DNA of 64,000 nucleotides from Owenia fusiformis (Eukaryota; Annelida; Polychaeta; Sabellida; Oweniidae): NCBI GenBank assembly GCA_903813345.2, contig CAIIXF020000010.1:7927169-7991168 (forward strand). The letters are read 5' to 3'. The first letter of the stretch is position 1, and each line of letters begins with the position of its first letter. Below are positions 24,901 to 50,613 of the stretch, piece after piece. The notes under the pieces were generated by a model. That model saw nothing but the letters and a program-made list of their open reading frames with translations. It did not search any database and had not been told where the DNA came from. The translations under genes were made by a program, and so were the position numbers.

Positions 24901-25383
24901 CAAGATAAACAACCCGAGACACGAGAGGAACAACCTGAGACACAAGAGGAACAAAAACAAGAAACTGCAGCAGTTGAAGATAAAAAGCCCGAAGAGGAGG
25001 AAGTAGACATTGACTTGAATGACCCTGAGGTTGAACAGGCAGCTATTAAGATTCAAGCTGGTATGCGTGGTATGCAAGCAAGGAAAAAGGTACAAGAGAA
25101 GAAAGAAGCCACATCTGAAACTAAATCTGATGAGCCTGCAGCTACTGAAGAAGCTAAACCTGAGGAGGCTAAACCAGAAGAGCCTAAAGCCGAAGAGCCT
25201 AAAGCAGAGGAAACTAAAGAGGAGGAAGTTGACATTGATTTAAATGATCCAGAAGTGGCTGATGCTGCTGCTAAGATTCAAGCTGGATTTAGAGGACACA
25301 TAGTGCGTAAAGAACTTAAGGAAAAGAAGGAGGCTCAGACCGCAGATGCAACTCAGGATAAACCAGAGGAGAGTGCAGAGTAA
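9984..25383 (+). CDS. Multi-IQ-motif, neuromodulin/igloo-like calmodulin-binding protein
   Basis: Coding exons: 9984-10149, 11888-11958, 14274-14452, 14998-15016, 17356-17499, 19076-19228, then alternative 3' parts 20778-21647 (stop), 22409-22699 (or to a stop at 22729), 24421-24465 and 24709-25383 (stop). All have AG/GT borders, phases agree, and from 15016 onward every junction is phase 0. The start MGNEVS fits the N-myristoylation rule (Gly2, Ser6). The exon at 14274 has two IQ motifs (ALKIQTKYR; TKIQSGFRGHRDR). Later exons repeat a module of acidic residues, DIDL(N/E)DPEV, and an IQ motif such as KIQAGWRG or KIQGQFKGFKAR; 13 IQ motifs in total. The KIQ..FRG..AR core resembles neuromodulin (GAP-43), Sp17 and insect igloo, which bind calmodulin in low calcium. 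Predicted isoforms are 533, 350 and 580 aa. A membrane-anchored calmodulin-binding role is inference. Which isoforms exist needs transcripts. Confidence 0.85.
11152..11325 (+). pseudogene. Possible retrotransposon (reverse transcriptase C-terminal) relic
   Basis: A 57-residue frame starts MLIRPVIGYGSRI and continues with RLDQIRENGIRLC. It recalls the 'LVRP.LEYG...LE.VQRRATRL' region after the catalytic core in LINE-type reverse transcriptases. The similarity is partial and no flanking blocks are intact. Lies in an intron of the IQ gene. Confidence 0.35.
12600..12925. repeat. Tandem duplication, two 163-bp copies
   Basis: Positions 12600-12762 are repeated at 12763-12925 with a handful of base differences (for example CCCAGATCT/CCCAGGTCT). 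The first copy has a CAG acceptor-like sequence just before it and an open frame. The unit length is not a multiple of three, so both copies cannot be read in one frame. Splicing from 11958 straight to 14274 already keeps phase, so I do not call it an exon. Confidence 0.8.
15228..16340. repeat. Higher-GC intronic insertion, probably a degenerate mobile element
   Basis: This block in the IQ-gene intron is less AT-rich than its surroundings, holds CACGTGA near both ends (about 15288 and 16337) and has no intact reading frame. I cannot define terminal repeats, so the element nature is inference. Confidence 0.3.
16877..16932. mobile_element. Very short palindromic MITE (TACAGTAAAACC-type)
   Basis: TGCAGTAAAACCTGTAA is matched by the inverted TTACATGTTTTACTGTA within 56 bp. 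The same terminal motif is found at 40216-40416 and 42101-42597. Confidence 0.55.
18467..18540 (+). repeat. tRNA-like sequence, probably SINE head or tRNA relic
   Basis: A-box-like TGGTGTAGTGG at 18467-18477 is followed by B-box-like GGTTCAAATCC at 18526-18536, the internal RNA polymerase III promoter pair of tRNA genes. The presumed acceptor stem ends do not pair, so it is not a normal tRNA gene. A T-rich tract follows at 18550-18580. Likely a tRNA-derived SINE fragment in an IQ-gene intron. Confidence 0.55.
19925..20055. repeat. ~23-bp imperfect tandem repeat
   Basis: Five to six units around AGTGATTATGTAGATGACATCATA, with drift between units. Intronic, IQ gene. Confidence 0.7.
20778..21647 (+). 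CDS. Alternative terminal exon with five IQ modules
   Basis: Begins after a CTTCAG acceptor and ends at TGA 21645-21647, in frame (phase 0) with the exon ending 19228. It encodes 289 residues: five copies of an acidic stretch, DIDL(E/N)DPEVE, AALKIQG(Q/T)FKGFKAR and a basic/acidic spacer, period about 170 bp. The central arginine of the classical IQ motif is lysine (FKG) in all five. A possible weak internal donor (AAG/GTC at 21632/21633) would let it join the downstream exons instead of stopping. A candidate poly(A) signal AATAAA is at 22333-22338. Confidence 0.8.
   Translation, partial: DADKIEERSSSKLEEEEEIDIDLEDPEVEAAALKIQGQFKGFKARKQVKAMKEETNKDTESEEKVVENNENAEEEIDIDLNDPEVEQAALKIQGQFKGFKARKQVKTMKEEQQTVQDNAIKDEEEPKIVEDEEEVDIDLEDPEVEKAALKIQGQFKGFKARKQVKAMKEEEKPIENETPKDEVKPKDEEEEVDIDLEDPEVEKAALKIQGTFKGFKARQEIKAKIEEQSKDDKVTNDDNTTLPQDQDEEEIDIDLNDPEVEKAALKIQGQFKGFKARKSKKDEPKVNQD
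22409..22729 (+). CDS. IQ-gene exon, internal or alternative terminal
   Basis: Acceptor GAGCAG precedes 22409. The reading frame has acidic, Asn/Gln-rich sequence and one IQ-like motif (AAITLQSGMRDYRDRQRV). It can be spliced at 22699 (AAG/GTGAAA, phase 0) to the exon at 24421, or be read through to TAG 22727-22729, with a poly(A) signal AATAAA at 22823-22828 close behind. Both choices keep frame. Confidence 0.65.
   Translation, partial: EALTAEEEEKAFVTNKQNPIHDQSDADPQNEAESQNEAENVKSAPDFAELDNNDPNREKAAITLQSGMRDYRDRQRVKEIRASMAGEQSQQTESEPKVKIITDRLP
22823..22828 (+). terminator. Candidate poly(A) signal, short IQ isoform
   Basis: AATAAA 94 bases after the TAG at 22727-22729; fits cleavage for the isoform ending in that exon. 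Confidence 0.45.
24709..25383 (+). CDS. Distal terminal exon with three IQ modules
   Basis: Begins after TTTTCCAG and ends at TAA 25381-25383; 224 residues. The first module is nearly the same as exon 17356-17499 (VDIDLNDPEVGAAATKIQAG then WRG), so these are sister copies. The second and third modules read KIQAGMRGMQARKK and KIQAGFRGHIVRKE. Between modules are low-complexity repeats (QPET..., KPEEA/KAEEP) rich in Glu, Pro and Lys. A small upstream exon, 24421-24465 (15 codons), is also phase 0 on both sides. Confidence 0.85.
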   Translation, partial: EAVKEETSKEEEVDIDLNDPEVGAAATKIQAGWRGAQGRKEAKEKAASKADEQSAAVEENQPETQDKQPETREEQPETQEEQKQETAAVEDKKPEEEEVDIDLNDPEVEQAAIKIQAGMRGMQARKKVQEKKEATSETKSDEPAATEEAKPEEAKPEEPKAEEPKAEETKEEEVDIDLNDPEVADAAAKIQAGFRGHIVRKELKEKKEAQTADATQDKPEESAE

Positions 25384-31225: not shown

Positions 31226-34200
31226 TCAAGATTTACTGGAAGATCGTTTTTGATGTTTATGACCACTTGTATGTCTTTGTCTTGTTTTGGTTACAGAGTG
31301 ACGGAATATAGAGTTTGTTAATGAGATGACTGGCGAGAATAACTGCAACGGGAACTCACTGGAAATATGCAAATAGAAACATATATATATAAATGATTTT
31401 TTATACAAATCTCAACCAACAACCTTTTGAATGATAATCATACATACACTAAGAATGGCATCTGACCAAATAGCAAACTAACTTAAGATATATCATCAAA
31501 AATACATGCTATGAAAGGATCTAAACTAAAGTAAACTATTATGCTAAATGTATATATTCTATATTTTATATATAAGCATTTGTACTATATATAAATATAT
31601 ATTTAATACCACACCGATTCTGATTTTATACAGTAAAATCTCTGAAGTTGAACACAGACTTAAGATTAAAAGAGTGTTTATCTTGAGGTGTGTTACATTC
31701 AATGCACTTTACATATTCATGATGAATAACATTGCTTTTATCAGATGTTATACATACATACACTACATAGACTGCAGGGGCGTAGCCAGCTTTGAGTCAG
31801 GGGTGGTGCAATCGCCAAAAAAATTTCAGTTTTCAGATTGCACCCATCGCACCCCCCTGGCTACGCCTATGGACTGTGTGGTAAAATATCACTTGTCTAG
31901 CAATGAATGGTAAGAAGTTATGATGGCTATAGTAACAAGAGCCATGAACACTTCATACTCACAATGTTTCCCTGATTGGCTCAGCTTCGTTAGCACTAAT
32001 GATGAATAGTGGGAATAAGATAGAGAACACACAGCCACTGAAAAATCAGATATATGTTATGAAATATCAACCTTCACTACCCAAAATTACATTTTACTGT
32101 CATTGTGGCAACCTATGGATGCCATCTTTAAAAACTCTTAAAAGTAATCTCAGACAATTGGCAACTCATACTTAGCATCTAGCATCTTAGAGTTTCTGAA
32201 GATAGTGTATGTAGATTTTCAAGTGAAGGACTCCATTATAGTCCTGCTGAAACACTTCTATTTGAATACAGTTTGAAAAATAGGCCTAAAATGGTCCAAA
32301 TATGTGACATTTGTCATGATTTTTCTCAATTTCAAATGAATTTCCAGGTGGGCACGTGCACCAGCCTTAAATAACCCCCCCCCAGCTGGGGAAATCACTG
32401 CTAAAGTATTTACCTAACTATGTATGATGAAGGCCAAGATGTCAGGAGGGCTAGTGGTAGACCAAAGCCAAAGAAATATGGCCAGTTGCTCTCTATGTAG
32501 GAAAGTCTCTGTTGCACTGGCCAGCCTGGTAGAACAATAACAAAATATAATGAAACAATGGTTTATATTTGAAAATTAATTAAAATCTAAGAATTGAGAC
32601 ATTTCCTTTTGCTTAATCCTCTGGTTGATCAAATTTTTCTACATATTAAAAGAAAAGAATGTCTTAGGGGTTTTCTGTTGAACGAAGCCATTTCGATGAA
32701 AAAATGACATTAAGTGTGATAATGAGCACAACTCATGAAGTCATATACAGGGTGGGCCAAAAAAACAATACTCAAATTTAAGGATGAATATCATATGATA
32801 TAACATTAAACCATGCCATGTATTGTATATCATTTTAAATATTAATAATTTCCTAACAATATGGCACCATCTGATTGAATTGATTTTTGATTTTTGGTCG
32901 CTCATGGCACCCCTGGTGTCAATTTTAGTCTCTAACTTCATGAGAAAACAAAGATTTTCAATTGGATGGTGTCATTTTGTTAGGAAATGATTTATCTTTA
33001 AAATGATATACATGACATGACATGGTTTAACATATATCATATGAATCATTCATCTTTAAACTTGGGTATTGGTTTTTTGGCCCACCCTGTAGTTTTGATG
33101 TAACCTCAGATTTTCAATTGATATTGGCATATGGGTGCTTTATACTAAAGAACTATATATACCGAACAAAGCTAGACCTACCCATGTTAAACCACTTGTA
33201 CTCAAAGGCATAGAGTGAATAGAGAAGACACATGTGCAGGAGAGCTACTATATACCCTATGGCAGGAATTGGCAGTAAACTAGCTAGCATACCCTGAAAC
33301 ATATTATAATACAATCAATAATCTTAGTATTTCAAATGTTCCAATTTTACACATAAAGGATTGGTGTCGATATGGTGAACTTTTTGAACACATGCTTCTC
33401 TTAAACCAATCATCAAGAAATTCTAAAAATTTTACACATCGTCAATTTAATGGTCATCTTTTGAATGGTAACAATAAAATTTGAGAAAAAAAAATATACT
33501 TTTCTCTATATTGTTTTAGAAAACACATCAGACACTTTTTTGTTCTTGGTATCATATGTTCAGAATGAAACGAAACATCTATCCTAACCCCATTTGAACA
33601 AAACGACATAAACACAACATGTTTAGGTCTCTCAATAATGTAACTGTACAAAGGAAAGTTTGGTTGATTCTAAATATCTTGTTAATGAAATAAAAGGTTT
33701 ATCTTAATTTTCATATATTTTGTTTTATTTGTTTTAATCTTTTGAATACTTTTTGTTAAATCAACCAAATTTTCCTTTGCATAACTATAATATTGAGAGG
33801 TCGAGAAAAATGTTGTATATGCTTTTTTGTTCCAACAAGGTTCATTCTCAAGAATTGGTAGAAAGGAACAAAAAACAATTGCACTAAAAAACAAAAAATG
33901 TTAACAAACACAGTTAAATAAAATATATATAAATAATTTTCACATTAAATTGTTGTCAATCAGTCAACATTACATAAAGGACCATGTTTTTTACAGAATG
34001 TTTTCAATAATTGGTTTAAGAGAAAAACATTGTTGAATTCAGTTCATCATATCGATACATATCCTTTGAAAAATTAAAAAGATTATGTAAAACATCATGA
34101 GTTCCATAATTTCTTGTAAATATTTTAAAGATTCAAAGGAAGACTCTAAACTGTTGAAATAATAACATTGATAAATCCATAAATATATAGACAAGTCTAC

Positions 34201-37200
34201 AATACAGATGAAACAAGAAAAAATAATTCCAAATAAGTTTGATAAAAATTTTCATTCAGGTGGTTCCTGTATATGGACTCCTTCTGTAAAACATATCTTA
34301 TTATGCTGGAGTCCGATTTTGAACTTTTCCATATCGTAAATTCAATTGTTGATTTACGGGTTTGTTGTATATCTATGATAAAGCGAATTCTGAACATTTC
34401 CGTAGGCTATATTTTTTAAATGTCGTACTACAGAAATTTACGGAAAAGTTCAGAATCAGACTCCTGTGTACCAACCTGTATAAGAAACAAACTCTGAAGC
34501 AGGAGACTGAACAGGATGTCTGCTATAACCTTGCTAAAACTTGGCAGCATCTGTGGTCTTCCACGTGCCTTTTTATAGGCTGCATCAGCAATGTCCTAAA
34601 ATCAAAAAAAGTTTATTTGTACAGAAATAATGAAATCTTTTTTAAGATGAAATAAACTTATGCTATAGAATCTAATAACATGAATAAATGTGATTCATAT
34701 TTCAAAATATTGTCAAAATCTAAATATTAGGTTATTTAATCTTAAATAATGATGAGTGTGTGTAAATGCAATATATCTAGAAACTACTGATTATCTTGCT
34801 GATTACTAAAAACTATATCTGGAGAGAGCTATTGATTCTTTTGTTGATAACAAATAAACCATCTAATCTGGAACCAGAGACTGTTAAACTATCTTTTTCC
34901 CTTTTCGCCCGATTTGTTAATTACAAATAAACCATCTCACCTTGTATATATACAAGAGACTGTTAAGAGTATTTTGCTGTTTACAAATAAACCATCTCAC
35001 CTTGTATATATACGAGAGACTGTTAAGAGTATTTTGCTGTTTACAAATTAAACCTTCTGACTTGGAACAAGAGATTGTTGACAATTTTTTGATTACAAAT
35101 AAACCATCTCACCTGGAACCAGAGACTGTTGACTATTTTACTGATTACAAATAAAGGTAGAATCCAGAGAGCACTAAATATCCAGGACAGTAGGGGGCCC
35201 ATCCAGCTCCAGACAAAATTCTGCTTTGAGGATCCACCTGAATTACAAAAGTGAATTGATGCATTATTGAAATGGGTCAGGAATTATTGTTTTGGGGATT
35301 TAGCCTAACCTTTTCAGAAAACTGTAAACTACTGAAAAATTGACTAAAAGAAAATAGTTGTGTAAATCAAAGTTATTTTTCAAAGAAAATTACACACAAA
35401 TATTCTGTATGTCACTAAATATGCCATTAAAAAGAAGAATCCCAGTTTACAAAAAGTCATAATTAATGTTGTACTTAGGTAACTAATATCATTTTAACAA
35501 AAGTCAATAAAATACAGATATTACATTATAGATTGTATATATTATACAAGTATTATATTACACACTATATCCTTTTATATCAAATAATATTGCTGTGCAT
35601 GTTAATAAAATATAAACATTGAAACATTTTTTCAAAATTTTAACAAATTACAAAACGTTTCCTAATATGTGAAAGTCATTCTTTATATCTTATGTACAAT
35701 AATAGTAATTCATATGTATCGCTTGTTCTTTATTGAACACTATTTATTTTTGCTTTCCTCTGGTATTGACCCTTGTGTATGAAATTCATAAATTCTCTTC
35801 AATGAACTTTACAATGGGGCCCTGACCATCCAGGATAGCATTTACAGCCATAGTCCTCCATATTCCATAAATAATTGATCCCTCGAACAAAATAATCAGT
35901 CCCTCTAGGTGAGGTGTTCTGCAGAACACATCTCCCCTTGCCATTACAATTTAACTGGCTGCATTTTGATGCAAATGAATTAATGGATTTAACATATGGA
36001 CCCAATGTTGAATTGAGGTACACTTCAAGTTCTTTACAACCAGATGATGTGTTAACATTATCTCGAGCACCCCACAGTATCACACCATTGGCCCCCATGT
36101 TGAAAATCTCCCCAATGCTGGCTTCTAGGTCATCCTGAAACAGAAAATACGTCTGAATGATGGAAAAAAGGATGATACAAACAACAAACAAAATCCTTTT
36201 TCAAAAATTGAATCATGACCAGCAGAGGACTGTAAAACATGGCCCAAAATAAAGCATATACATGTACATGTATATTCAAAATATATTTACATGATACCAT
36301 TTATAATTTCAATCTATAATGATCATGTATATTGATTTTGCATGGTTATTCATCTAAACTTATAGTAACATACTCACAATTTTATATAATGACTGATCAT
36401 TAGCAAATCTGTATCTGGCATACACAAACACAGGCTTATCTCCTTGTTTAGTTCCTTTAGCTACTCTCTGTGCTTCCTGTATTTGTCCATGTACAAAGTT
36501 CTGTTTCAGTGTTTTTGTTTTAAGCTTAGAAGGTAAATAGACAGATGGGAATAGAGCTGTGCTAGCAGAAAACAACCAGCTTAATCTGAAAAACATGCTC
36601 CAAATTTTATAAAATGGCAAAGAACTATCAATTTGAAGTTGAACAGGTAAGTGGCTTTCTTGAAATTTTGAAAACAATATGTGATGTGGTGCCTGCACAA
36701 CCAGACAAACTTATGCATGCCCACCAGACAAGATGACAACAATATAGCAATTTAAAAAAGTGTGATAAAAATATTGTAAATGTTTTACTTTCTGGTAAGA
36801 GCAAAAACTGTAAAATATCAAATATAAACAAAATCACTGATAATGGGGCACCAATCACATTAGAGCTCAATTATAAAATAGAGAATACCTACTTATCATT
36901 CTGTTGCTTTGTCTTCGTTGAACACTGACGAGTCCCAGCATAGTTGTAACACTCTGGAAAAAGATAGTATCCCCAGTATCCACCAGGTCTAGTTTCATTG
37001 GATATCTTGACTGTCTGCTCCATCATGTCCCTATTTAGAAACACATTATATATCATATTGCTTTGAGCCATATAATTTTTATCAACACATTGCAAACAAC
37101 ATCGTCAAATCATATGATCTTGCAAATATGTTAGGTTGAATTTCATCATCAGTGTGGTTTCAGAAATTCTACAGATTTTCTTACATAAAAAATGAATACT

Positions 37201-40200
37201 AAAGCAACTCTTATTTTACCTCGCTGCTTTTTCAAATTCACTTTTTGCAACATTCTGGATTTGACTGTGGTTCCAAGATGGATGTTTTCGAGAAACATCA
37301 GCTTCAGAAAGCTTATGGTATATTGTTTTGCTGTTATAGTTTCGGCCCCATGTAGGCACCCAGCTTTCCCAATCTATCACACCAATACCTTGAAAATTCT
37401 GATCAGGAATGACTCTTATTATGTCAGATTTCACTTTGTTTAGATGAGATGTCAGGTTCACATGCTGAAAATATGATATGAAAAAGAACTCAAGAAAAAA
37501 TATGATGCTCTTTGGAAGCTATTTTAATTCCTTCACAAAGGATTGATATATACACTATGTCCATAAAGTCTCTTTACAATTATAAACAAGAACACAAATG
37601 TGTACAAAATGTCCCCACCAAGTGGTGATCCCGTGAAATGGTTATCCTGAAAATGAGTAGACAAGACTTTACCAACACAATTTGAGGACGGAAAATCCAA
37701 AGTGGCCAACTTAAAATTTACCCAGAATGCCCAAAATTTAGTCAGTTCTAGATTTTCATACTAAGAACCACCCCTGAAAATTTGAAATTGATCCGTCATA
37801 CAGTTAACCAGAAAACATGTAAACAAGACTTTACAGACAAGATTTCAAGATGGAAAATCCAAAATGGCTGCCTTGACCCAGAATGTCAAAAAACTAATCT
37901 GTTTGTAGATTTTCATACTAAGAATCATCCCTGAAAATATGAAATTGATCTACCAAACGGTTCACCTGAAAACGGGTAGACAAGACTTTACAGACAAGAT
38001 TTTAGGACAGAAAATCCAAAATGGCTGCCTTAACATTTACGCAGAATGCAAAAAAAGTAATCAGATGTAGATTTTCATACAAAGAATCATCCCTGAAAAT
38101 TTGAAATTGATCTATCAAACCGTTCTCCTAAAAACGCGTAGACAAGACTTTACAGGCAAGATTTTAAGACGGAAAATCCAAAATGGCTGCCTTGACATTT
38201 ACCCAGAATGCAAAAAAACTAATCAGTTCTAGATTTTCATACTAAGAATCATTCCTGAAAATTTGAAATTGATCTACGAAACGGTTCACCTGAAAACGAG
38301 TAGACAAGACTTTACAGACAAGATTTTAGGACGGAAAATCCAAAATGGCTGCCTTGACATTTACCCAGAATGCCAAAAAACTAATGAGATCTAGATTTTT
38401 ATACTAAGAATCATCCCTGAAAATTTGAAATTGATCCACCAAACGGTTCACCTGAAAACGCGCAGACAAGACTTCACAGACAAGATTTTAGGACCGAAAA
38501 ATCCAAAATGGTCGACATTAAAAAAGTCCTTATGAGTTTTTGCTGATTTCTTTTTACAAAATTATCACATATAACTACTGTTAACAATAAAGTAGACTTT
38601 TACAGCAAAGTACATCTGAAATTATTTATAAAGCTACTAAATAGTTAAAGTATGAAAACTCAAAAACACCATTCAATATGATACAAAGTATTATCGTGCG
38701 CTAACTTTTCTTAAGACATTCAAAATGGCTGACATGACTGAGCTAGCAGGTCCAAAACCTAATCAGATCTAGAATGAAGTGAGCTGAACAAGATGTTAAA
38801 GTTTTAAAAGCAACTGTGAAGCAGTTTTTCTTAAAGTTTGCAGACAAGGATTTTAGCATTTGACTTCAAAATGGCCGACAGGAAGTAGGTATCGAGTTAA
38901 TTTTTTTTCATCCACATCTGTATGCACTCATAAGTTATCCCTGAAAATTTGAAGGTGATATCTGTAGCGGTTTTGGAGAAAACTGCCGGACGTACGGACA
39001 GACAGACGGACAGACAGACGGACGCGCCTAGGCCGACAATATGGCCCCACACTATGTGGTGGGGACATAAAGAAAGTCTGTGTAAAGAGTAAAATCACTT
39101 TGTAGACACCCTGTATGATCAAATACAGAAGTTATTGAAGGTTTAAGGATGCAAATATGTCCTCATTCAAATTGAAATAGGGGATGTCCCATTTTAACAT
39201 TCACAGGTATACATCCTGAAATAAAGCCAAAATTGTTTGAACTTTTCAGAAAATAGGCATGGAGCGTAATTTTGAGAACAAGATTTATCAGTTTATCCCT
39301 TCTAATCACTTAAATAATCAAAACAAACATGGTTTATCTCACCTGAGGAATTCCTCCATTATGCTGGTTGCCTTGCTTGTCTACATATGGATAAGTCCCA
39401 AGTTGAGAAGAATAAAATATTGTCATAAATTCTCCAGTATATTTCTGGTCCTCATTCACAACCACATCAAATGCTGTTAAGTTTAAATTGACTCCAAACT
39501 TTTTACATTCTGCCGATGGGGTGTTCCAAATGATAAGGAATGGATCCTTAGGTAGTGGCTGTTTATCATGTATGTGTCCATGTAGATCTTTAATGTGATT
39601 AATGTTAGTCAATGTAGAACATTCCATACACATTACATGTGTAAAAATAATTGCTAGAGTTATCATTAAACCTTTTGGACTCATTTTGATCTTAAATTTG
39701 AGGCTCTAACAGTAAAGCAGTGTTAACCTTTTCTTTTCAACTCAAGTTTAAATGTATGCCTGAATGACACTATAGAACTGTGTTTACAAATAGAAATAAA
39801 GATATGTTATTTGAGTCATAGTGACCTTCTATGGTCTTATGATCAAGAAATAGTCATAAAACTTGAGAGCTAATAAAGAGTTTATTCAAACAAACTGTAA
39901 ACTGCATTGATTTATTTCCTGTTTTATTCAGAGGTCAAGATAAAGAAAAACATTGCAGACCTACCATTTATCACTGTAGTCAACCAAATTGAGACTAGAA
40001 AATTTAAACTATTAAAAATTGTTTAATGGTAGAAGAAAATTTAAACTCCTAATATACAATCCTTATTGATTTCTACAGTGTCTCGAATTTACATATAATC
40101 CCTAGATTATCAAGCACACTTCTGCAATCTTAAAATACATGAAAGGATTTCTAGATATAATTTTCATATCTGAGACTCCATTTTACATATCTATCCACTG

Positions 40201-43200
40201 GAAAAATATTTCTGATACAATGAAACCTGTCTTAGTGAACACCTCTCTGTCACAGTGTCATGTGTCACAGTGAACACATGTGTCTAGTGAACACCCATTT
40301 TCAGCACATACAGCACTAACCTCTGTATAAAATGACCTCTCTATAGTGAACACCTACCTACAATGAACACATTTTTGTGGCTACATAGGTGTTCACTATA
40401 CACAGGTTTTACTGTACGTAAAACTTGACTTCTCAAGAGGATTTTTTTTAAATATCCCTTTTCCCTCAGGAGAACTTACATCACTGTTACATAATTTTTC
40501 TCAAAAAGCATTACTGCTATCTTATTTACAATAACAGTATTGTATTGTTGGTTTGATGTTTTATTTTGGCACCATCCCAAATTGCTTCCTAAATATCCAT
40601 TATTGATTCTGCTTAATGAACTTTACACTGTGGCCCTGACCATCCAGGATAGCATTTACAGTCATAGTGCTCCATATTCCAAAGATGATTGGTCCCATGA
40701 ACATGATATTCAGTCCCTCTAGGTGAGGTATTCTGCAGAACACATCTCCCCTTGCCATTACAATTTAACTGGCTGCATTTTGATGCAAATGAATTAATGG
40801 ATTTAACATATGGACCCAATGTTGAATTGAGGTACACTTCAAGTTCTTTACATTTAGATGCTGTTTTAACATTTTCACTAGAGCCCCACAGTATCACACA
40901 ATTAGCCCCCATGTTGAATATCTCCCCTATGCTGGCTTCTAGGTCATCCTAAAATCAAAACATATTTTAATGGCCAAGGAACTAATGATACAAACTGCAA
41001 ACAATGGACAGAAAATAGGCTACACAAAATCAACCAACTATCCTGCAGGCTGGGATTTTAGAAAAGGGCAAGGCAAATTAAGGTCAATGATGAAATTCTA
41101 ACTCCATATTCAGGTTCATTCAAAAATTTCAAGAAAGCTGTGAGGGGGGTTTTCAGAAAATTCTAGTGATGCAGTTGTTTATGACTATGAATATCCTCTG
41201 GTAAATGTTGGTAGTATATGTTTACCTTTTTATAAAATGACTGATCATTAGCAAATCTGTATCTGGCATACACAAACACAGGCTTATCTCCTTGTTTAGT
41301 TCCTTTAGCTACTCTCTGTGCTTCCTGTACTTGTCCATGTACAAAGTTCTGTTTCAGTGTTTTTGTTTTAAGCTTAGAATGTAAATAGACAGATGGGAAT
41401 AGAGCTGTGCTAGCAGAAAATAACCAGTTTAATCTGTAAACAAAGTAAACAAACTTTGTGTGGATTGTGGATATGGACAATAAGGGAAAGGTCTTGTGAT
41501 TAAGGAAATAATCTCCAAATATTTCGAAAATTAAAAAATAATCGAAGTTCCATTCGTTTCTGCTATAAATGTTTGGATTTGAGCAAAGTAGTCTGATAAT
41601 TTATAGATAAACATTGACCCCTGTTACACAGGCCAGTTGAAATGCTTCGTTACGAAGCAATTTGACAAAAAGCTTCGTAACGAAGCAATTTTGGGCCTGT
41701 GTAACACCTCCGCCTTCGTTGGAAAAGCTTAGTTGATAACGAAGCAATTGAGTAGAAAATCCAACGAAGGTTAGCTCCCAACGAAGCTTTTTTGGCCTGT
41801 GTAACAGGTAGCTTCGTTAGAAAATGCTTAGTTGGCGGTTTGCGCATGCGCGTAATAAAGAGCACATTCATCATTTTGTATTAAACGAGAGGAATCGCGA
41901 GGAAAGAACATGTTTTTAAGTACGTATTATTATAATGCTACGTTTTGAATAAAATAATTACCTATTTGCGTCACTGATTGACGCTAACTCAACCCCCAAA
42001 CGCCACGTACAAATGTGATTTACCGTCTTTCGTAGCATTTCATTCGATTCCCTGCCTTTGCTCGCATTGATATGACAAAAAGTATTAAATCTAAAAAACA
42101 CAGGTTTTACCGTATATGTATACGGTAGTTTTGAAACGTTTATCTGATCTATTAGAGAATAAACCTAGTATTTAAATGTCCCTCTCCTTTCGGAAAACTC
42201 CGTCTCAAGTGTGGAAGGGTAAACTTTTGAAATTACATAAGATATGCTTACTAAATAGAAAGTTGTGGCATACATGTTTAATATTAATTTTTTCTTGCGC
42301 CTCGAATAATTATACCTTGAATGTAATTCTAAAGGTGTTAATACCATGATACTGATACAAGTGCTTCCCGGTGAATCACATCAGGGAATATTGCCGATTC
42401 GATTGATTCGAAAATGTCTCTCTTCAAAAATCGTATTCAACTGGCTATCGCCCCATTGCAATACATGTACTTGTACTAGTCGTTCCATTATTTTATTCTT
42501 CGACGATTTTAAATTGTAATTGAATTTAAACTCCATGTTTAAATATATTGAATTAATTACGTTTCAAAACTTCCGTATACAAATACGGTAAAACCTGCGG
42601 ACAAGGAACGGTGGCCAAAATTGTTTCTTGTCGACAGATATTTGCCACAGAGAGGCTGCATGTCGTAGGCCAGCCCCAAACAATATTGATGTGTCGTAAG
42701 ACGATGCTTACAACTGATATTCAAGTTTCTTCCTATTTGCGCCATTTTCGAATTCAGCGGACGGCTGATGGATTAACATACTAATTCATGTCAAACTCAC
42801 TCAAATATGCATGGAGTATTGGCGAGACGGGTAATAATCATATTAAAATGAATTGGTCATGAAATAGTAGTTACACGCGGTCCGAACTTCGACCGTTAAT
42901 CTGAATTTTTGACCTACCGGATGTTTGAAAATCAAGGATTACGAGTCTCATACTGCACCGTTTTCTTCAAACTTGTTCCATTCAAAGCATAACAAATATC
43001 CCTTTCTGATGGTACATTATTCTCTTAAACAGAGTCCCTACTTCCAGCGGCATTTTGGTCCATAGCTGTAAGAAGGCCTTCTAACAGCTTGGGACCAAAA
43101 CGCTGCTAGAACGAGGGACTCTTTACAATAAAGTAATGCACCGACAGAAAGGCATTTTTGTTTTGCTTTTAATGGTATAGGTTTGAAGTAAAACGGTGCA

Positions 43201-46200
43201 GTATGAGACAATCGCAATCCTTGATTTTCAAGCATCTGGTAGGTCGAAAATTCAAATTAACGATCGAAGTTAGGACCGCGTGAGTTAAACCACCAGCCGA
43301 ACACCGAGATATTTTAGTAATGGCTACACCATTTGAAATATAGCTGAGAAGTCCATTTGGAAATTGAACGTTTTTATACGATTTTACATACTAGTTGTCT
43401 GTATAAACCCAAAATCCAATTCCTCCTAGTAATTAACATAGGCCTATTTTTATTCCATATGTTCCAAAGGAAATGATAGAAAATGAAAACAATACTTGTA
43501 ATCGTATTGACAGCTGAAATATATAAAAATCGAAATGATAGGAAAAATGTATGGACATGTGTACGGAATTATCACATTCATCTTGTTTTATTTTCCCGAG
43601 AATTTTGAACTAGTCTTTTTCTGTGCTGATTTGTTAAAATAAACATTAAAAATTAGATTTTTGAGTTTGATCAATGGTTTATATCAAAAGAATAAAAATA
43701 TTAATCATAATAAGTAGGTGGGGCAGATGAGTAATGCGCACGCGCAACGAAGCATTTTAAGTGCAGTGTAACACCAAATAATTGCTTCGTTAGGGTTGAA
43801 TGAAGCCAGTGTGGACACAATTTTTTCGCTAACCTTCGTTACAAAAATGCTTCGTTAGACTCAACCCAGCAGTGTAACAGGTACCATCATCTGACTATTT
43901 TACAGAAATCTATCTCCTTCGCAAATCAATTAAGATTACAGATTGCTATAAGTATAATAATATAATAAAAAGTCTCAATGAAAACAGAAAATGCTTACTT
44001 ATCATTTTGTTGTTTTGTCTTAGTTGAACACTCTGGAGAGCCTGCATAGTTGTAACATTCTGGAAACTCATAGTATCCCCAGTATCCACCAGGTCTAGTA
44101 TCATTGGATACCCGGACTGTCTGCTCCATCATATCCCTTTATGACACATGAACAAATTAACAATGATGAAACAATGACAAACATTTTCGATATTCTAGAT
44201 GTATTCATATGGTTATCACGAGTCTTTATTTTAGTTTTAAGTTGCTGAGATGAACAGTTCAGTTAAATGGCCTGATATTATGTGGGATATGATGACTTTG
44301 AAAAAATGGATGTTATCAAATCTACTACGAAGTAACTTGGTTACACTTAGCTATAAAATTAACAAAATAGAAAAATGACTAAACAATGAAAAATAATCCA
44401 GAAATTTTCGTAATCTTTTTTATTTTCAAAAGTGAGTCTCGTTTTATAAGCTTTTTGAAAAAAGGTATAAATTTTTGATGAAATGGTTCCAAATTTTCAA
44501 AATAGGACCCATCTATTTCTGTCATATTTTTCCCCATTTTTGTAAATTTCCAGATCTGTCCCTGCAGTATGATACCTCAAATTGAATATCAGAATATTTT
44601 TCTATTTATACAGATTTATTCATACCTTGCAGCTTGTTCAAATTCACTCTTTGCATAAATCTGTATTTGAGTGTGATTCCAAGATGGATGTCTTTGAAAA
44701 ACATCAGCTTCAGAGAGGTTCTGATAGATGATCTTGCTGTCATAGTTACGCTCCCATGTGGGTCTCCAATTCTCCCAATCTATCACACCAACACCTTGAA
44801 AATTCTGGTCAGGAATGGCTCTTTTGATATCAGATTTCACTTTGTTTAGATGAGATGTCAGATTGACATGCTGTAAATAAGATATGGTATTGTATACCTC
44901 TGAGGTTTTTCACCTTTAGCTTTTTACCACCGAGACTTTGCTTGCAATACTTTTGTAGCTTCTATTTACTGAAATGCAGCCATAAACTTTTTCCTTGTAG
45001 CCCTTTAAAACCAAACTTACAGCAAATGTAAAACTATTTTTAACAGTTTTATTCATTCAAATACTTACATTTATTATTCACCTTATTACTATTTACTCAT
45101 TTACTTATTTCAATAACATATTGTTCACAATCAATCCTACAGAACTACAGGATGTTCAGGAAATAAAGATAATAATGTCGTAACTTTTTTATTTATTCAT
45201 GGATTGCATTGAAAGTTTCAGAGATCATAGTTTTAACTAATTTTAATTTATCGCTGGAGTTTCAGCTTCAGGCGATTTGATTGATTGATTCTGTGGTTGT
45301 CATAGCGACTCGAGTAGCTCTAAGGCGGGGCAGTTGGAATAACTGAAGTATATTTGTATGTTTTAAATGTTTTCAAAAGAGATTCTATCATGTTTATGAC
45401 TTAAAATGGATGCTTAAACATAGTTATAACTATAAGCCTGAAATTCTTTGCCAATTTATCAATTTATTCTACATAATTTCCTCCATTCTAGACACAAACT
45501 CTTTGCCTCTTGAACCTTTTTAAAATACTTCACAGAATTCTTCTTGACTCATTTCCTGGAGTCTGTGTTACACATGTGAATGTATGGCGTGAGTATTCTC
45601 AAATGCATGTCTTCTTAAATCTGGTTTTGATTCAGCAAAGAAGTATAAATCATTTGGCGCTAGGTTGGGTGAATAAGGTGGATGCTTGAGTTGCTCTAAT
45701 CTCAGCTGCTTATTTTTTTAGTGATTATGGTAGCAGTATGGGAGGGGGAATTGTCCAAGTGGAAGAGAAATTGCATCCCGGGTCGCTTTCGATGTAATGC
45801 CTGTATTTAGTCATAAAAATCCCTTTGAATATCATTAAAAAAGCATTTATTTGACTTTTATATCATAAAAGAAAACAATAGAAGAATTTTATCATGGAGA
45901 TGCACCAAGGAAGCTTTAAATATGGAGTCAAAATCGGTTTGCCATGCTAAATGTTACACAGAAACTACTGCAGTTATTCCATGTGCCCCGCCTCAGCGCT
46001 AATCGCATTGCTATGCCAACCACAGAAATGACAAATCAAATCGCTTGAAGCTGAAACTCCAAAAGTAATTTTAAATATGTCTAATCTATAATCCCTGCAA
46101 ATTTTATTGAAATTCATGAATAAATAAAAAAGTTATGACATTATTATCTTTATTTCCTGAACACCCTGTATATATACAGTAATACAGTTGTATCTATGTT

Positions 46201-49200
46201 AAAGGCAGAATCAGATCTAGCAATTACTTTGATTACATTGGTGCTTCATCTTGATGAAAATTGTTTCAATTTTAGAATATTTTGGGCTCATATCATTCCA
46301 TGTCATATCTATTTTCTAAAAATACCCCTAGTATAAACTTTATTTGAGGAAAACTAAAGGATTTTTACAAATTTGACAACATTTGTCTGGAAGAATGGTT
46401 ACCATATTTATCATTTGGGAGAATGTAAATATTTTTCCCCTATTTTTGCACTTTGAATCGTAAATAACTTCACCAATTTCTTGCAATTTTGTCACTTCCG
46501 ATAGATCTGATTTTGTCTTTATTAATTACATGTACATCAACATACATCTCAAGTGTATTTTTTTGTAACAATTGTGCTTTAACTGCAAACTTAAAGTTTG
46601 AGAATTCTAACAAACTGCAAAAAGAGGTTTATCTCACCTGAGGAATTCCTCCATTATGGATGCCATCCTTGTCTACATATGGATAAGTCCCAAGTTGAGG
46701 AGTATAAAATATTGTCACAAAATCGCCAGTAAATTTCTGGTCCTTATTCACGACCACATCAAATGCTGTTAAGTTCAAATTGACTCCAAATCCTTTGCAT
46801 CCTTCTGATGGGGTGTTCCAAATGATAAGGAATGGATCCTTAGGTAGTGGCTGTTTATCATGAATATGTTCATGTAAATCATTAAGAAAATCGCGCTGGA
46901 TGTGATTTCTAGTAGTTGATCTAAAGCATCCGACACACATTGAAAATGATGCTAAAATTGTTATTAAACCTTTTGGTCCCATTTTGATTTCAAATCATTG
47001 AGATAAATATAGTATGGTATAGATGCCTGTGCTTTATATTGACCTTATCTGAACTTTAAGTTGTGTCTGAATTATAAGCCACTAAACTCTGTTAACAGAG
47101 TAGATAAGCTGTTTGGGTCACAAAGACCTGTAAAGTCATATGATCAAGAAATACACCACAAATCCTGTCATATGATAAAGTTTAACTTTATCATAACTAA
47201 TGATAACAACAACACCAAGGCGGCACAGAAAATCCCATCGAACACCTAATGAGTGTCAGATATCATTGCTAGAAATCATGTCTCAAAATGGTTCAACCCA
47301 AAATGTATATTACATAAAAAGGTGCCATTTACAAAATGGTAACCTACAGCCAGATTGTTATTAGAGAGTGGAATAGGCTTCCAAGTATTCACATATAAAA
47401 TTTCAACAAAATTGCTCCATAGCAAAAAAACATATAAACATTTAAAAACACCTAAAATGGCCATGATAGTCAAAGTGTCATAAGACAGTGTGCCATGCTT
47501 TCAATATTCACATATCAAATATGAACAAAATAAATCTCAAAATAGCTTGTCAACACTTTTAAATATGACAGCAACATTTCGTTTTTAAAGAAAAATTTAA
47601 ACTAAATCAATATCCTTTATTTTTGGGCATTTAAATCATCTATAATACAGTTCTATATATCATTATTATATTGTTACTAAAATACTATAAAATAGATGGA
47701 AGCCATTTTGTAACCGATGACCATTTTCAAAATTGGTTTTCAAGTAGAACTGGTACTCACATAGGGCATACTTGTGTATAAGATATAAACAAATGTGGGC
47801 CAACGGTATCTGAGTTATTGCATGGACAGATGGACAGATGGTTGGATGGACAGACGAATGGACGGGGAAGTTCTTTAGATAAACATTTACAAATTAAATT
47901 CATAAAATGTGGAGCTGATATGGATGATGTGAATACAAATGCTTGTAAAATGATATTTTGAAACCAAGGTTTCATGTCAGACAAAAATGATCTTTTTACA
48001 AGATTTATTTTTTGCCAACTCACCAGCATACCCAGCAGCACAAGATGATGACAATATAAAAACTTTAATTGAAAGCCCATGGTCCAATAAAAACAAGAAG
48101 TTTTTTGTAATTTTTCAATACCATAATTTTACATTCTTCACATACAAAATCACCCCAGTTTATGAAAACATACCACAGACTTGAGAGATTTTAATTTTTT
48201 GTGTAACTTGAGATGTCCTCTCTACCCAAGTACATTGTAATATGTTTCTTTTTTTCTTTATTGTAACTGCATGTATTTAAATTCTGTATTTATATTTGTA
48301 TCGTGTAATTGAGAAGCATTTAAATTAGCAACTATGCTATTTTGCTAATCTGAATAAATATAGTATTATAAACAAAACAGACTTGTAATTAAATAGATGT
48401 ATTACTATTTTGTCATCTATATCAAACATATGCATATCAAGGTATTATCTTGACTGGTCTTATAATTATAAAGTATACTCATACCTTATGTAAGGCTTTT
48501 TGGTAATTTACTTTTTTAAAAAAATGCTTTTAAATATGATTTATTTAATGTTACTTAGCTAAAGCAGAGTATATAAGCACAGTCCAATAAGTTTAATTAA
48601 TCATTTTAATAAAATGTGATTTTCTAAAATGAGGAATAACTGCCATGCCATCTATAAATATTTATGGTGCAAGTTTTTTTTCAATCTTTGGTATATTTTA
48701 GGACCAGAAATATCTAATGAAGTTTTGATCATGCATGGTACTTTGAAAATATGGGGCTAAACCATACAAGTACAAGTTAAGTGAAAAGCACTGCATGCAA
48801 ATTATAATATTCTGTCTATTCTTATACATTGTGTTATGCACAAACCCAAAAAATTCCCACTGAGATTAAGGTCAGGGTGCACTTTGATGAAATTTCATGA
48901 CCATAAACATAACTCATTCCACACATCATCTAAATCTTTCATTCTTGCACAAATGATGCGTTAATGTACTTAGATTATTAATTGAGGGTTGATAATTCTT
49001 CAAAATGTTTGAATAACTGGAATATTCAGTTGTTTACTTTTCAAAATTGCAAATGTTTACTTACTGTATACAAAGTAAAGAAGGAATCTAATACAGGGTA
49101 GTAACAATCCATTGAAGGCGATTATGGAAAGCTGCAAACAGAAGAATATTTCTATTAAAAAGATGGTAATAATAGTTGAATGTATTGCAAAAGTGTACTT

Positions 49201-50613
49201 TCTGAAAACATAAATTGAGGAAATATTTGCTTTTCAAAATGAGGTTTAAGGATCTGACCATGAAGAGTAAGCAGCATCTCGATCTCAATATTAACAAATA
49301 TTTTGTCATGTGACCTGTGGTTCAACCAATTACAAAATAAGAAACATGATGGTGAGATAATTATACATTTTTTTACACATTCTAAGTAAACTGAGTGTTA
49401 TATTTGTATTACAATAACATTAAATGAGTTCATAGTCTGGTAATATTTTTTTACAAAAGAAAATTGTAATAAAGTCTGTGACAATGAACACTAATAAATG
49501 GATATATTTGTATTTCCCAAAATATTATAAATTACATACCCAGAATAAGGGAAGTGTTCAATGTTTCCCATTCATAAAATATGCAAATGAGAAATGAGAT
49601 ATATACCTGTCCATTTTGGTAAATACATTTAGGTAAGTACAACAAGGAAAAGAATATTTGGTATACATTTTAGGGGTATATACAAATTGGAATGGCATAG
49701 GCTTGTTTGCTCAAATATTATATCTTATACCCTCAGATATTACAAATTACATACCCAGAATATTCCTCCATTCCATGCACAGCATAAGAAGATTCTATGT
49801 AGGACTTTAGGCTCACTAGAAAAAATATAAGCCCCTTATCACTGAAGGAAATAGCACATACAAATGAACAATTATTTGTGATGAATACTGATTGAAAAAG
49901 ATAACCATCTTTCAATTCTCTTTGTACATATACCAATGGCATATGGCCCTACTCTCAAAATTTAGAGAAAAGTTGATTTTTTATATTGAATTGCCCCACA
50001 CTATAAAAATACTGGATATTCTGAAAAATGGCCAATAATTTACATTTTATTAATAGTCCATATTTATATTTCAAAATGCCCCAAAACACTTCAAATGCAA
50101 TCTCATTTTCAAATTTTATTGGGGGCAAAACCCCCATCAAATCTCTTTCGCTTCACTCACTCGTAGGGTACACTTACAAAATACCCACTACCCGCTACGC
50201 CACTGTATATATGTCTTACGAATTCTTATGAATAAGTAAAAATAGCATGAGATCAGTGTACTATTATTGCACTGTTGTACATGTATTTCAAATGCAACAG
50301 GATACAAATCTTTAACTGATTTCAAACAGCAACCGTAGAACAATGGCTGTAGCATAATATCACAACTCATGACATAATGAATAAAGTAATGGAATTCAAA
50401 AACATACCTCTCTACTTTCTTTTCTCTAGTTTTATGCTGATCTCTCTCTGCTCTTCTCTGCGCCAAAACACTCAGTTGCTCCTGGGCCTTTACTGATCCA
50501 GCGCTCCTTTTAGATACTTCTTCATCCAATTTGTGAATTTTCAATGTTCCTAATATGGCATCTCGCATACCAGATATAATATCAAATAAAGTTCTTTTTA
50601 TAGTGTTTGTCAT
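31226..50613 (-). CDS. EI24: EI24 / EPG-4 ER membrane autophagy protein, complete
   Basis: Nine exons on the minus strand: 50613-50408, 49815-49755, 49131-49065, 35237-35113, 34595-34476, 33293-33182, 32525-32414, 32037-31963, 31358-31226. All junctions are AG/GT and phases agree, giving 336 residues (human protein 340). Conserved blocks: [11 protein letters not shown] in exon 1, [10 protein letters not shown] (exon 2), [17 protein letters not shown] (exon 4), DIADAAYKK...[13 protein letters not shown] (exon 5), [19 protein letters not shown] (exon 6), [13 protein letters not shown] (exon 7), [17 protein letters not shown] (exon 8). These are hallmarks of EI24, a multi-pass ER protein needed for autophagosome maturation and linked to p53-induced death in vertebrates. 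A basic, polar first exon precedes the membrane segments; the C-terminal tail is basic and Ser/Lys-rich. Intron 3 is 13.8 kb and contains two hyaluronidase genes. Poly(A) candidates on the minus strand lie near 29750-29755. Confidence 0.95.
31775..31871. mobile_element. Short hAT-like MITE (CAGGGGCGTAGCCAG ends)
   Basis: CAGGGGCGTAGCCAG and GGTGGTGCAAT are matched by inverted ATTGCACCCATCGCACC and CTGGCTACGCC. The last bases of the right end are mutated. GACTG occurs on both sides, but a clean 8-bp duplication is not visible. Lies in EI24 intron 8. Confidence 0.7.
32746..33091. mobile_element. MITE with TACAGGGTGGGCC termini
   Basis: Left TACAGGGTGGGCCAAAAAA and right TTTTTTGGCCCACCCTGTA are exact inverted ends; the arms keep pairing inward for over 100 bp (GATATACATGACATGACATG versus CATGCCATGTATTGTATATC). 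TA at the borders suggests Tc1/mariner mobilisation. In EI24 intron 6. Confidence 0.85.
33355..34067. mobile_element. Foldback element in EI24 intron 5
   Basis: Left end AAAGGAT...GTCGATATGGTGAAC is inverted at the right as GTTCATCATATCGATACAT...ATCCTTT. Further inside, CTCTTAAACCAATCATC pairs with AATTGGTTTAAGAG, and CAAAGGAAAGTTTGGTTGAT pairs with ATCAACCAAATTTTCCTTTG. Centre near 33712. Part of the right arm (GAATACTTTTTGT..AAATCAACCAAA) also occurs at 29203-29235. Confidence 0.75.
34846..35155. repeat. 50-75-bp tandem repeats derived from an EI24 exon-intron border
   Basis: Five units begin (T)TACAAATAAACCATCT at about 34846, 34921, 34981, 35041 and 35093. The unit containing 35113 is the real 3' end of EI24 exon 4 plus its splice donor; the other copies lie downstream in the intron on the minus strand. 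Two middle units (34921, 34981) are exactly 60 bp and differ at one base. Confidence 0.75.
35799..39684 (-). CDS. Hyaluronidase (GH56), distal copy
   Basis: Five exons: 39684-39343, 37464-37220, 37030-36893, 36585-36378, 36134-35799; 422 residues, within the usual range for hyaluronidases. Exon 1 has a hydrophobic signal-like N-terminus (residues 5-20) and [13 protein letters not shown]. Exon 2 carries the catalytic motif GVIDWESW, with Asp145 and Glu147 matching the acid-pair of GH56 (DxE). Exon 3 has [15 protein letters not shown]; exon 4 [19 protein letters not shown]; exon 5 begins DDLEASIGE and ends in a Cys-rich EGF-like module ([12 protein letters not shown] ... [12 protein letters not shown]). 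GH56 enzymes hydrolyse hyaluronan or chondroitin and are secreted or lysosomal. All key residues are present, so it should be active. Intron 1 holds a nested repeat insertion (37551-39115). Lies wholly inside EI24 intron 3. TTTATT (minus-strand AATAAA) is at 35743-35748. Confidence 0.93.
37551..39115. mobile_element. MITE split by a second, tandem-repeat element
   Basis: Outer ends TACACTATGTCCATAAAGTC (37551) and GTAGACACCCTGTA (to 39115), with AAAGTCTGTGTAAAGAGTA just inside the right end, match the intact 79-bp MITE at 30840-30918. The inner insertion spans 37609-39068. Lies in intron 1 of the distal hyaluronidase gene. Confidence 0.75.
37609..39068. mobile_element. Element with ATGTCCCCACCA ends and ~160-bp tandem repeats
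   Basis: Starts ATGTCCCCACCAAGTGGTGA and ends TATGTGGTGGGGACAT. Six units of ~160 bp run from about 37640 to 38530, each with TAGACAAGACTTTACAGAC, ATCCAAAATGGCTGCCTTGA and AAATTTGAAATTGATC. Near the right end is a GGACAGACAGACGGAC tract. Non-coding. Confidence 0.75.
39811..39852 (-). promoter_or_regulatory. Upstream block conserved between the two hyaluronidase genes
   Basis: On the minus strand, TATTTCTTGATCATAAGAC lies ~130-170 bases before the distal-copy ATG and has a counterpart upstream of the other copy (47111-47153). Followed in both by a GGTC...GTGAC(C/T)CAAA-like stretch. A shared promoter element or simply residual homology from the duplication. Confidence 0.4.
40216..40416. mobile_element. 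MITE (TACAGTAAAACCTGT family)
   Basis: TACAATGAAACCTGTCTTAG and TAGTGAACACC at the left; inverted GGTGTTCACTATA and ACAGGTTTTACTGTA at the right. Several GTGAACAC repeats inside. Lies between the two hyaluronidase genes. Confidence 0.75.
40613..46982 (-). CDS. Hyaluronidase (GH56), proximal copy
   Basis: Five exons: 46982-46638, 44870-44626, 44136-43999, 41433-41226, 40948-40613; 423 residues, with the same intron positions and phases as the distal copy (exons 2-5 identical in length). Catalytic GVIDWENW is intact (Asp146, Glu148). Also [15 protein letters not shown] in exon 3 and an EGF-like C-terminus ending [13 protein letters not shown]. Protein identity to the neighbour is about 79% in exon 2 but about 93% in exon 4, with a 46-residue identical run in exon 5. 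One extra cysteine (GANCVILWG instead of GANGVILWG) is odd. Intron 3 contains a nested transposon stack (41620-43881) and intron 1 a mariner relic (45146-46170). A TATA-like TTTATA (TATAAA on the minus strand) at 47033-47038 lies about 55 bases before the ATG. Confidence 0.93.
42101..42597. mobile_element. Nested MITE with CAGGTTTTACCGTA ends
   Basis: CAGGTTTTACCGTAT...AGTTTTGAAACG at 42101-42139 is inverted at 42560-42597 (CGTTTCAAAACT...ATACGGTAAAACCTG). About 38-bp arms. Confidence 0.75.
42874..43282. mobile_element. Palindromic MITE, copy B
   Basis: Same family as 1977-2381: CACGCGGTCCGAACTTCGA at the left, inverted TCGAAGTTAGGACCGCGTG at the right, and a shared centre with AGCTGTAAGAAGGCCTTCTA. 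AGTTA occurs directly on both sides (42869-42873 and 43283-43287), a possible 5-bp target duplication. Confidence 0.88.
45146..46170. mobile_element. Defective mariner-type element
   Basis: Inverted ends TACAGGATGTTCAGGAAAT and ATTTCCTGAACACCCTGTA, pairing inward through AAAGATAATAATGTC and beyond, flanked by TA. An internal minus-strand relic of transposase is described separately. The ~1-kb length and stop codons show it cannot move by itself. In intron 1 of the proximal hyaluronidase gene. Confidence 0.88.
45568..45693 (-). pseudogene. Mariner transposase C-terminal relic
   Basis: Reads [17 protein letters not shown], the C-terminal catalytic block of mariner transposases (usually HPPYSPDLAPSD..LF). 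The frame runs 41 residues and then stops; no upstream catalytic aspartates are seen. Confidence 0.85.
47111..47153 (-). promoter_or_regulatory. Upstream block conserved between the two hyaluronidase genes
   Basis: Minus strand TATTTCTTGATCATATGAC, 130-170 bases before the ATG at 46982. Counterpart of 39811-39852 at about the same distance. Confidence 0.4.
47250..49064. other. EI24 intron 3, part upstream of the nested genes
   Basis: No exon or clear repeat found. A stretch at 47825-47870 has GGACAGATGG-type short repeats similar to those in the 37609-39068 element. Confidence 0.4.

What the first reader, a model, noticed from the sequence alone, without database searches (positions are those of the whole stretch)
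35237..49065. Two tandem hyaluronidase genes nested in one intron of EI24, same strand
EI24 exons 3 (49131-49065) and 4 (35237-35113) are 13.8 kb apart, and both complete five-exon GH56 genes lie between them in the same orientation as the host. Same-strand nesting of a duplicated multi-exon gene pair is uncommon, because the host transcript must splice past ten competing exons and two internal poly(A) sites.
Basis: partly seen in the sequence, partly recalled or inferred. Interest (0 to 1): 0.85.

Follow-up and report, generated by a model that had tools for sequence, protein, structure and literature searches.

The report
Two hyaluronidase genes inside EI24 intron
Two neighbouring copies of a sugar-cutting enzyme gene sit, in the same reading direction, inside one intron of an unrelated autophagy gene in what looks like an invertebrate genome; the arrangement is somewhat unusual but of a known type, and the two copies may have been overwriting each other's exons.

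Summary
Minus-strand exons at 50613-31226 splice in frame into a complete 336-aa EI24. Its third coding intron (49064-35238, 13,827 nt, phase 1) contains two complete five-coding-exon GH56 genes on the same strand, HYAL-B (46982-40613, 423 aa) and HYAL-A (39684-35799, 422 aa). All 10 GH56 matches found in the 498-Mb genome are these ten exons, and EI24 was found once, so the whole detected hyaluronidase repertoire sits in one intron. The weakest link, that exons 1-3 belong to EI24, rests on frame, position and human EI24 recalled from memory; Pfam alone does not recognise them. Same-strand nesting is a minority type, not a rarity: 76 of 296 simple human nested pairs (PMC8467205). Three dispersed repeats make up 35% of the host intron. 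Transcription is untested. New member of a known kind; modest interest.

The parts
50408..50613 (-). EI24 coding exon 1 (ATG)
   Evidence: (recalled human EI24)
49755..49815 (-). EI24 coding exon 2 ([22 protein letters not shown] with the split codon)
49065..49131 (-). EI24 coding exon 3, last exon before the host intron, ends phase 1
35238..49064 (-). host intron, 13,827 nt, phase 1
35113..35237 (-). EI24 coding exon 4, first exon after the host intron
34476..34595 (-). EI24 coding exon 5
33182..33293 (-). EI24 coding exon 6
32414..32525 (-). EI24 coding exon 7
31963..32037 (-). EI24 coding exon 8
31226..31358 (-). EI24 coding exon 9 with stop
46638..46982 (-). HYAL-B exon 1
44626..44870 (-). 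HYAL-B exon 2 (catalytic DWE)
43999..44136 (-). HYAL-B exon 3
41226..41433 (-). HYAL-B exon 4, near-identical to HYAL-A exon 4 (silent divergence 0.02)
40613..40948 (-). HYAL-B exon 5 with stop
39343..39684 (-). HYAL-A exon 1
37220..37464 (-). HYAL-A exon 2 (catalytic DWE; V at 37357-37359 where HYAL-B and four solved relatives have R)
36893..37030 (-). HYAL-A exon 3
36378..36585 (-). HYAL-A exon 4
35799..36134 (-). HYAL-A exon 5 with stop
40560..40565 (-). AATAAA 48 nt past the HYAL-B stop (possible poly(A) signal)
35729..35748 (-). two AATAAA, 51 and 65 nt past the HYAL-A stop (possible poly(A) signals)
37585..39071 (.). dispersed repeat in HYAL-A intron 1; 39 other places at 98-99% identity (40 candidates scored of 2892, itself included); carries the 162-bp tandem repeats
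41612..43886 (.). about 2.28-kb dispersed repeat in HYAL-B intron 3; 23 other near-full-length copies at 94-99% identity (40 candidates scored of 1849, itself included)
45146..46170 (.). about 1.03-kb dispersed repeat in HYAL-B intron 1 with 205-nt inverted ends that begin and end in TA; near-full-length copies at 87-93% (40 candidates scored of 2331)

Best explanation
A GH56 gene came to lie inside the third coding intron of EI24, in the host's orientation, and was tandemly duplicated (in place, or before it arrived). Each copy is an independent secreted-enzyme gene with its own start, stop and probably its own promoter and poly(A) site; EI24 is made by splicing exon 3 to exon 4 across the whole 13.8 kb. 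Since the duplication the introns of the two copies have diverged almost beyond recognition, helped by insertions of dispersed repeats, while short exon patches (most of exon 4, the middle of exon 5, possibly the end of exon 1) have been re-homogenised by gene conversion that stops where intron homology ends. Shown: gene models, phases, nesting of the coding exons, copy number as far as the searches reach, the silent-divergence pattern and the dispersed repeats. Inferred: secretion, independent promoters, host splicing, conversion as the cause of the pattern, and enzyme activity (probably on chondroitin as much as, or more than, hyaluronan).
For: In-frame complete models with GT-AG introns and phase 1 on both sides of the host intron. 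PF07264 at 71.2 bits over residues 71-263, one stretch that crosses the intron position at residue 112; PF01630 at 395.6 and 397.6 bits. EI24 exons found once, 9 of 11 matches here, one per exon, E 9.5e-6 or better; the 2 others have E 0.5-0.6. Exons 1-3 align with recalled human EI24 at 84 bits, against at most 18.1 bits in 30 shuffles. 10 of 10 GH56 matches lie here. No EI24-like exon inside the host intron at E up to 1. Silent divergence per exon 0.29, 0.60, 0.45, 0.02, 0.14; longest identical run 122 nt, reached in 0 of 10,000 codon shuffles. Exon 4 against exons 2+3 p = 2e-6 (exons grouped after seeing the data). Longest run of 67 silently identical codons reached in 24 of 20,000 within-amino-acid permutations, the two longest runs together in 1 of 20,000. 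Introns 1-3 score no better than the best of 40 shuffles.
Against: No RNA evidence. Pfam does not recognise exons 1-3 alone, and they raise the EI24 score only from 67.7 to 71.2 bits. The host donor is not specially strong: -7.2 kcal/mol against U1, with 8 of the other 15 donors stronger, among them exon 1 of both nested genes at -11.1. Not all non-coding sequence has diverged: intron 4 (score 30, shuffle maximum 25), the 700 nt upstream of the ATGs (45 against 35) and the 450 nt downstream of the stops (35 against 28) keep short similar stretches. Conversion is read from two sequences without an outgroup; silent-site constraint or polishing error could mimic it.
Confidence: 0.8

Rival explanations
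1. Exons 1-3 and exons 4-9 belong to two different genes or are joined by misassembly, so the hyaluronidases lie between genes rather than inside one.
For: Pfam alone does not identify exons 1-3; no transcript data; dispersed repeats lie on both flanks of the pair, where assemblies can break.
Against: Frame and phase fit exactly; exons 2-3 are 50% identical over 36 residues to recalled human EI24; exons 4-9 alone would lack the N-terminus, and no second copy of either half was found; no N in the window.
Confidence: 0.06
2. The hyaluronidases are not independent: they start from the EI24 promoter as alternative 3' ends of its transcript, through a non-coding or host first exon.
For: 22 of 53 same-strand human nested genes were judged most likely splice variants of the host (PMC3192792 passages). 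A TTTACTGTTAG acceptor-like string lies just upstream of the HYAL-A ATG (sequence), so a 5' untranslated exon is possible.
Against: Each copy encodes a complete protein with its own ATG; the host intron is phase 1 while the nested introns are phases 0,2,2,0, so no single splice from host exon 3 into nested exons 2-5, or from nested exons 1-4 into host exon 4, keeps the frame. The two copies share phases, so this is only four independent cases and may be chance.
Confidence: 0.1
3. The low silent divergence of exons 4 and 5 reflects selection on silent sites (splicing or RNA signals) rather than gene conversion.
For: The similar blocks stop close to exon ends, as exon-bound constraint would.
Against: Exons 2 and 3 of the same genes have silent divergence 0.60 and 0.45; within exons 1 and 5 the level changes sharply, as conversion patches do.
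Confidence: 0.15
4. The exon 4 and 5 identity is an artefact: short-read polishing copied one paralogue's exons over the other.
For: Mis-mapped reads act on exactly such near-identical, isolated exons (inference). 5 of the 7 exon 4 differences lie within about 15 nt of its ends (sequences), where reads are anchored by unique introns.
Against: Two interior differences remain in exon 4, and exons 2 and 3, of similar or smaller size, were not homogenised. How this assembly was made is unknown. I raised this odds from 0.08 to 0.12, and lowered the best explanation from 0.82 to 0.80, on re-reading where the differences lie.
Confidence: 0.12

Closest known systems
Same-strand nested protein-coding genes of animals (human parallel nested pairs; PMC8467205 and PMC2330155, passages read)
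   Same: Complete internal gene inside one intron of an unrelated host, same orientation, expected transcriptional interference.
   Different: Two multi-exon paralogues in one intron; internal genes are described as typically short and intronless (PMC8467205).
Tandem same-strand nested genes with transcriptional interference, e.g. KTI12 in TXNDC12 (PMC3192792, passages read)
   Same: Same-strand protein-coding gene in a host intron; predicts host exonisation, intron retention and premature poly(A). Hosts with two or three nested genes were seen there too (23 of 74, mostly non-coding nested genes).
   Different: The passages I read describe no multi-exon paralogue pair in one intron; here ten coding exons would compete with host splicing.
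GH56 hyaluronidases: HYAL1, PH-20 and two further solved enzymes (1fcq, 2atm; bee and wasp venom enzymes by recall)
   Same: Full GH56 domain, catalytic DxE; HYAL1-like cysteine-containing C-terminal part.
   Different: HYAL-A has V where HYAL-B and all four solved relatives have R in the W-R-P motif after the catalytic pair.
EI24 / EPG-4 autophagy protein (PF07264; EPG-4 and the autophagy role are recalled)
   Same: 336 aa, EI24 domain, 53% identity over 315 aa to recalled human EI24.
   Different: Third coding intron carries two genes; the C-terminal tail does not align well with recalled human EI24.

Membership tests
Nested gene pair | Internal gene lies wholly inside one intron of another protein-coding gene | tested here: met
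   Coding exons 46982-35799 within intron 49064-35238; untranslated exons not testable, and see the EI24 upstream-exon row
Nested gene pair | Host transcript spliced across the intron | not testable with these tools
   No RNA data; only phase and splice sites fit
Nested gene pair | Internal genes transcribed independently of the host | not testable with these tools
   No transcript 5' ends; AATAAA near both stops is weak
EI24 (PF07264) | Domain above the curated cut-off | tested here: met
   71.2 bits against 32; 67.7 bits for exons 4-9 alone
EI24 (PF07264) | Exons upstream of the intron are part of EI24 | tested here: inconclusive
   Pfam: no match for exons 1-3 alone at E up to 1; match of 84 bits to human EI24, but that sequence is recalled
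GH56 (PF01630) | Near full-length domain above the cut-off in both copies | tested here: met
   395.6 and 397.6 bits against 23.2
GH56 (PF01630) | Catalytic D-x-E | tested here: met
   VIDWE in both, aligned with VIDWE of HYAL1; D129 and E131 of HYAL1 named as catalytic-centre residues in PMC4667920
GH56 (PF01630) | Hydrolysis of hyaluronan | not testable with these tools
   The C. elegans relative prefers chondroitin (PMC4667920 passages)
Interparalogue gene conversion | Patches of low silent divergence against a diverged background | tested here: met
Interparalogue gene conversion | Patch groups paralogues together against orthologues of another species | not testable with these tools
   No related genome held

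The most novel reading that the evidence does not exclude
The animal's entire GH56 repertoire has been kept for tens of millions of years inside an autophagy gene's intron, with exon-only gene conversion keeping the two enzymes' shared parts alike while the active-site exon diverges. HYAL-A, with V in place of the conserved R, may be an enzyme of changed specificity, and its expression may be tied to EI24 transcription.
Probability: 0.1. Interest if true: 0.6.

Novelty: new member of a known kind. Interest (0 to 1): 0.36.

Why it matters
Same-strand nesting is thought to be purged because transcripts interfere (PMC8467205). A pair of intact multi-exon paralogues in one intron is a natural test of how a host transcript ignores ten foreign exons, and the paralogues may show conversion confined to exons after intron homology was lost. 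If an ordinary RNA-seq set joins 49065 to 35237, the case is useful but not surprising.

Tried and rejected
Strong host donor as the reason splicing works: rejected; 8 of the other 15 donors pair better with U1.

Insertion scar around the nested pair: no repeat of 24 nt or more shared by the two flanks was reported; both flanks carry dispersed repeats (the families were not compared with each other except through), so no mechanism of arrival is visible.

EI24 exons acquired later across a neighbouring gene: unlikely if exons 1-3 encode the usual N-terminus, but that rests on a recalled sequence, since Pfam is silent.

cDNA-mediated conversion: not supported, not excluded. Differences sit at the end of exon 4 (L/F and I/K) and silent changes reappear between codons 318 and 338 in exon 5, though the first 20 nt of exon 5 are identical and the 67-codon silent run reaches 6 codons into exon 5.

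Structured RNA in the window: none at gathering threshold. Pfam on ten other long open frames of the window: IQ motifs in two; weak matches only, or none, in the rest. Solved structure related to EI24: none at E up to 1.

Papers (listings only unless said): EI24 with hyaluronidase and intron, 0. Hyaluronidase with nested, 'intron of' and tandem duplication, 1, by title and abstract a cancer-vaccine review. Gene conversion with nested gene, exons, introns and tandem, 6, none by title about such a pair. Nested genes with at least three of the four terms, none by title about such a pair. One search (184 papers, 8 listed) gave general gene-conversion papers that I did not read.
Full report
CHECK OF THE OBSERVATION. 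On the minus strand, nine coding exons from 50613 to 31226 splice in frame into a 336-residue protein that matches EI24 (PF07264) with 71.2 bits against a cut-off of 32, residues 71-263 in one stretch. Exon 3 (49131-49065) ends in phase 1 and exon 4 (35237-35113) begins in phase 1; the intron is 13,827 nt and the codon across it is serine 112. Inside it, on the same strand, are HYAL-B (46982-40613, 423 aa) and HYAL-A (39684-35799, 422 aa), each with five coding exons and PF01630 scores of 395.6 and 397.6 bits. Distances from the coordinates: 2,082 nt from host exon 3 to the HYAL-B ATG, 928 nt between the genes, 561 nt from the HYAL-A stop to host exon 4. All 16 introns of the three models have GT-AG ends; the boundaries were placed by eye.

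COPY NUMBER. In the 498-Mb own genome 10 of 10 PF01630 matches are the ten exons here, as are 10 of 10 matches of the HYAL-B protein. EI24 gives 11 matches: 9 here, one per exon, E 9.5e-6 or better, and 2 elsewhere with E 0.5-0.6. Withheld stretches and weakly matching exons could hide others.

THE WEAK LINK. Exons 1-3 alone have no Pfam match at E up to 1, and exons 4-9 alone score 67.7 bits, so Pfam adds little for the upstream part. No solved structure matches EI24 at E up to 1. Together with phase, position and single copy, I take the gene as one.

THE TWO HYALURONIDASES. Both keep the VIDWE motif and a HYAL1-like cysteine-containing C-terminal part. HYAL-A reads WVP where HYAL-B and all four solved relatives (HYAL1, PH-20, and 1fcq and 2atm, bee and wasp enzymes by recall) read WRP. 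A spider-enzyme paper (PMC4667920, passages read) reports that hyaluronan is supposed absent from flies and worms and that the C. elegans relative prefers chondroitin; so 'hyaluronidase' may be a misnomer here.

EXON-CONFINED SIMILARITY. Silent divergence between the copies is 0.29, 0.60, 0.45, 0.02 and 0.14 for exons 1-5; the longest identical run is 122 nt, reached in 0 of 10,000 codon shuffles. Exon 4 differs from exons 2+3 with p = 2e-6, exon 5 with p = 6e-4; exon 1 does not (p = 0.11) (rounded counts, groups chosen after seeing the data). Of 331 conserved degenerate codons, 43 differ silently: 11/80, 17/61, 7/36, 1/63 and 7/91 by exon; the longest silent-identical run, 67 codons, was reached in 24 of 20,000 permutations and the two longest together in 1 of 20,000. 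Introns 1-3 align no better than the best of 40 shuffles. Against a clean exon/non-exon split, intron 4 scores 30 (shuffle maximum 25) through a 20-nt stretch near its 3' end, the 700 nt upstream of the two ATGs score 45 (maximum 35) and the 450 nt downstream of the stops 35 (maximum 28); the upstream similarity fits a duplication that included promoter-near DNA. The simplest reading is gene conversion in short exon patches after the introns had diverged. Silent-site constraint and polishing error remain rivals: 5 of the 7 differences in exon 4 lie near its ends (sequences), which both conversion and polishing would give. The less similar exons suggest a duplication tens of millions of years old, if invertebrate silent rates recalled from general knowledge apply.

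DISPERSED REPEATS. Three elements fill 4,787 of 13,827 nt: 37585-39071 (39 other places at 98-99%; 40 candidates scored of 2892), 41612-43886 (23 other near-full-length copies at 94-99%; 40 scored of 1849) and 45146-46170 (inverted ends of 205 nt; near-full-length copies at 87-93%; 40 scored of 2331). That they are transposons is inferred from copy number and, for the third, inverted ends. Without them HYAL-A intron 1 would be 391 nt and HYAL-B introns 1 and 3 would be 742 and 290 nt. The host intron is thus large partly because of insertions inside the nested genes' own introns, two of them with close copies and so probably recent.

HOW IT PROBABLY WORKS. The host intron is phase 1 and the nested introns are phases 0,2,2,0 in both copies, so any single mis-splice between host exon 3 or 4 and a nested coding exon's inner splice site shifts the frame; with four independent cases this could be chance. 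The host donor is average (-7.2 kcal/mol; 8 of 15 others stronger), so nothing special marks the host junction. Independent promoters and occasional interference are expected by analogy with PMC3192792 (passages). None of this is shown.

CONTEXT. Same-strand pairs were 76 of 296 simple nested pairs in human (PMC8467205, passages) and 75 nested parallel against 152 nested antiparallel in another human count (PMC2330155, passages). So the arrangement is a minority form of a known kind. The 498.3-Mb genome, whose hits fall mainly on contigs C1-C12, resembles the 505.8-Mb, 12-scaffold assembly of the annelid Owenia fusiformis (PMC9977687, passages); this is a guess, not an identification.

Noticed in passing
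34823-35156 (minus strand): An array of about 60-bp units begins inside EI24 exon 4: the exon's 3' end and donor region recur five more times in the next intron at 79-89% identity (E 2e-4 or better), giving possible decoy donor sites; read-through soon meets a stop.
   Followed up: partly
37585-39071: A dispersed repeat with internal 162-bp tandem units, 98-99% identical at 39 other places; resembles tandem-core non-autonomous elements known from molluscs (recalled).
   Followed up: partly
37357-37359 (HYAL-A exon 2): V replaces the R of the WRP motif next to the catalytic pair in HYAL-A only; possible change of activity.
   Followed up: partly
798-934 and 4619-4738: The same 15-bp minisatellite unit (AACCCAGTTGTCCGA) occurs as two arrays in opposite orientation.
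   Followed up: no
20754-21644 and 24685-25380 (+): Two open frames with repeated IQ calmodulin-binding motifs (5 and 3 stretches) on the other strand, presumably a neighbouring gene.
   Followed up: no
58941-60284: Long tangle of 12-139-bp tandem repeats, many built on ACGGGAGTTTTTACGG.
   Followed up: no
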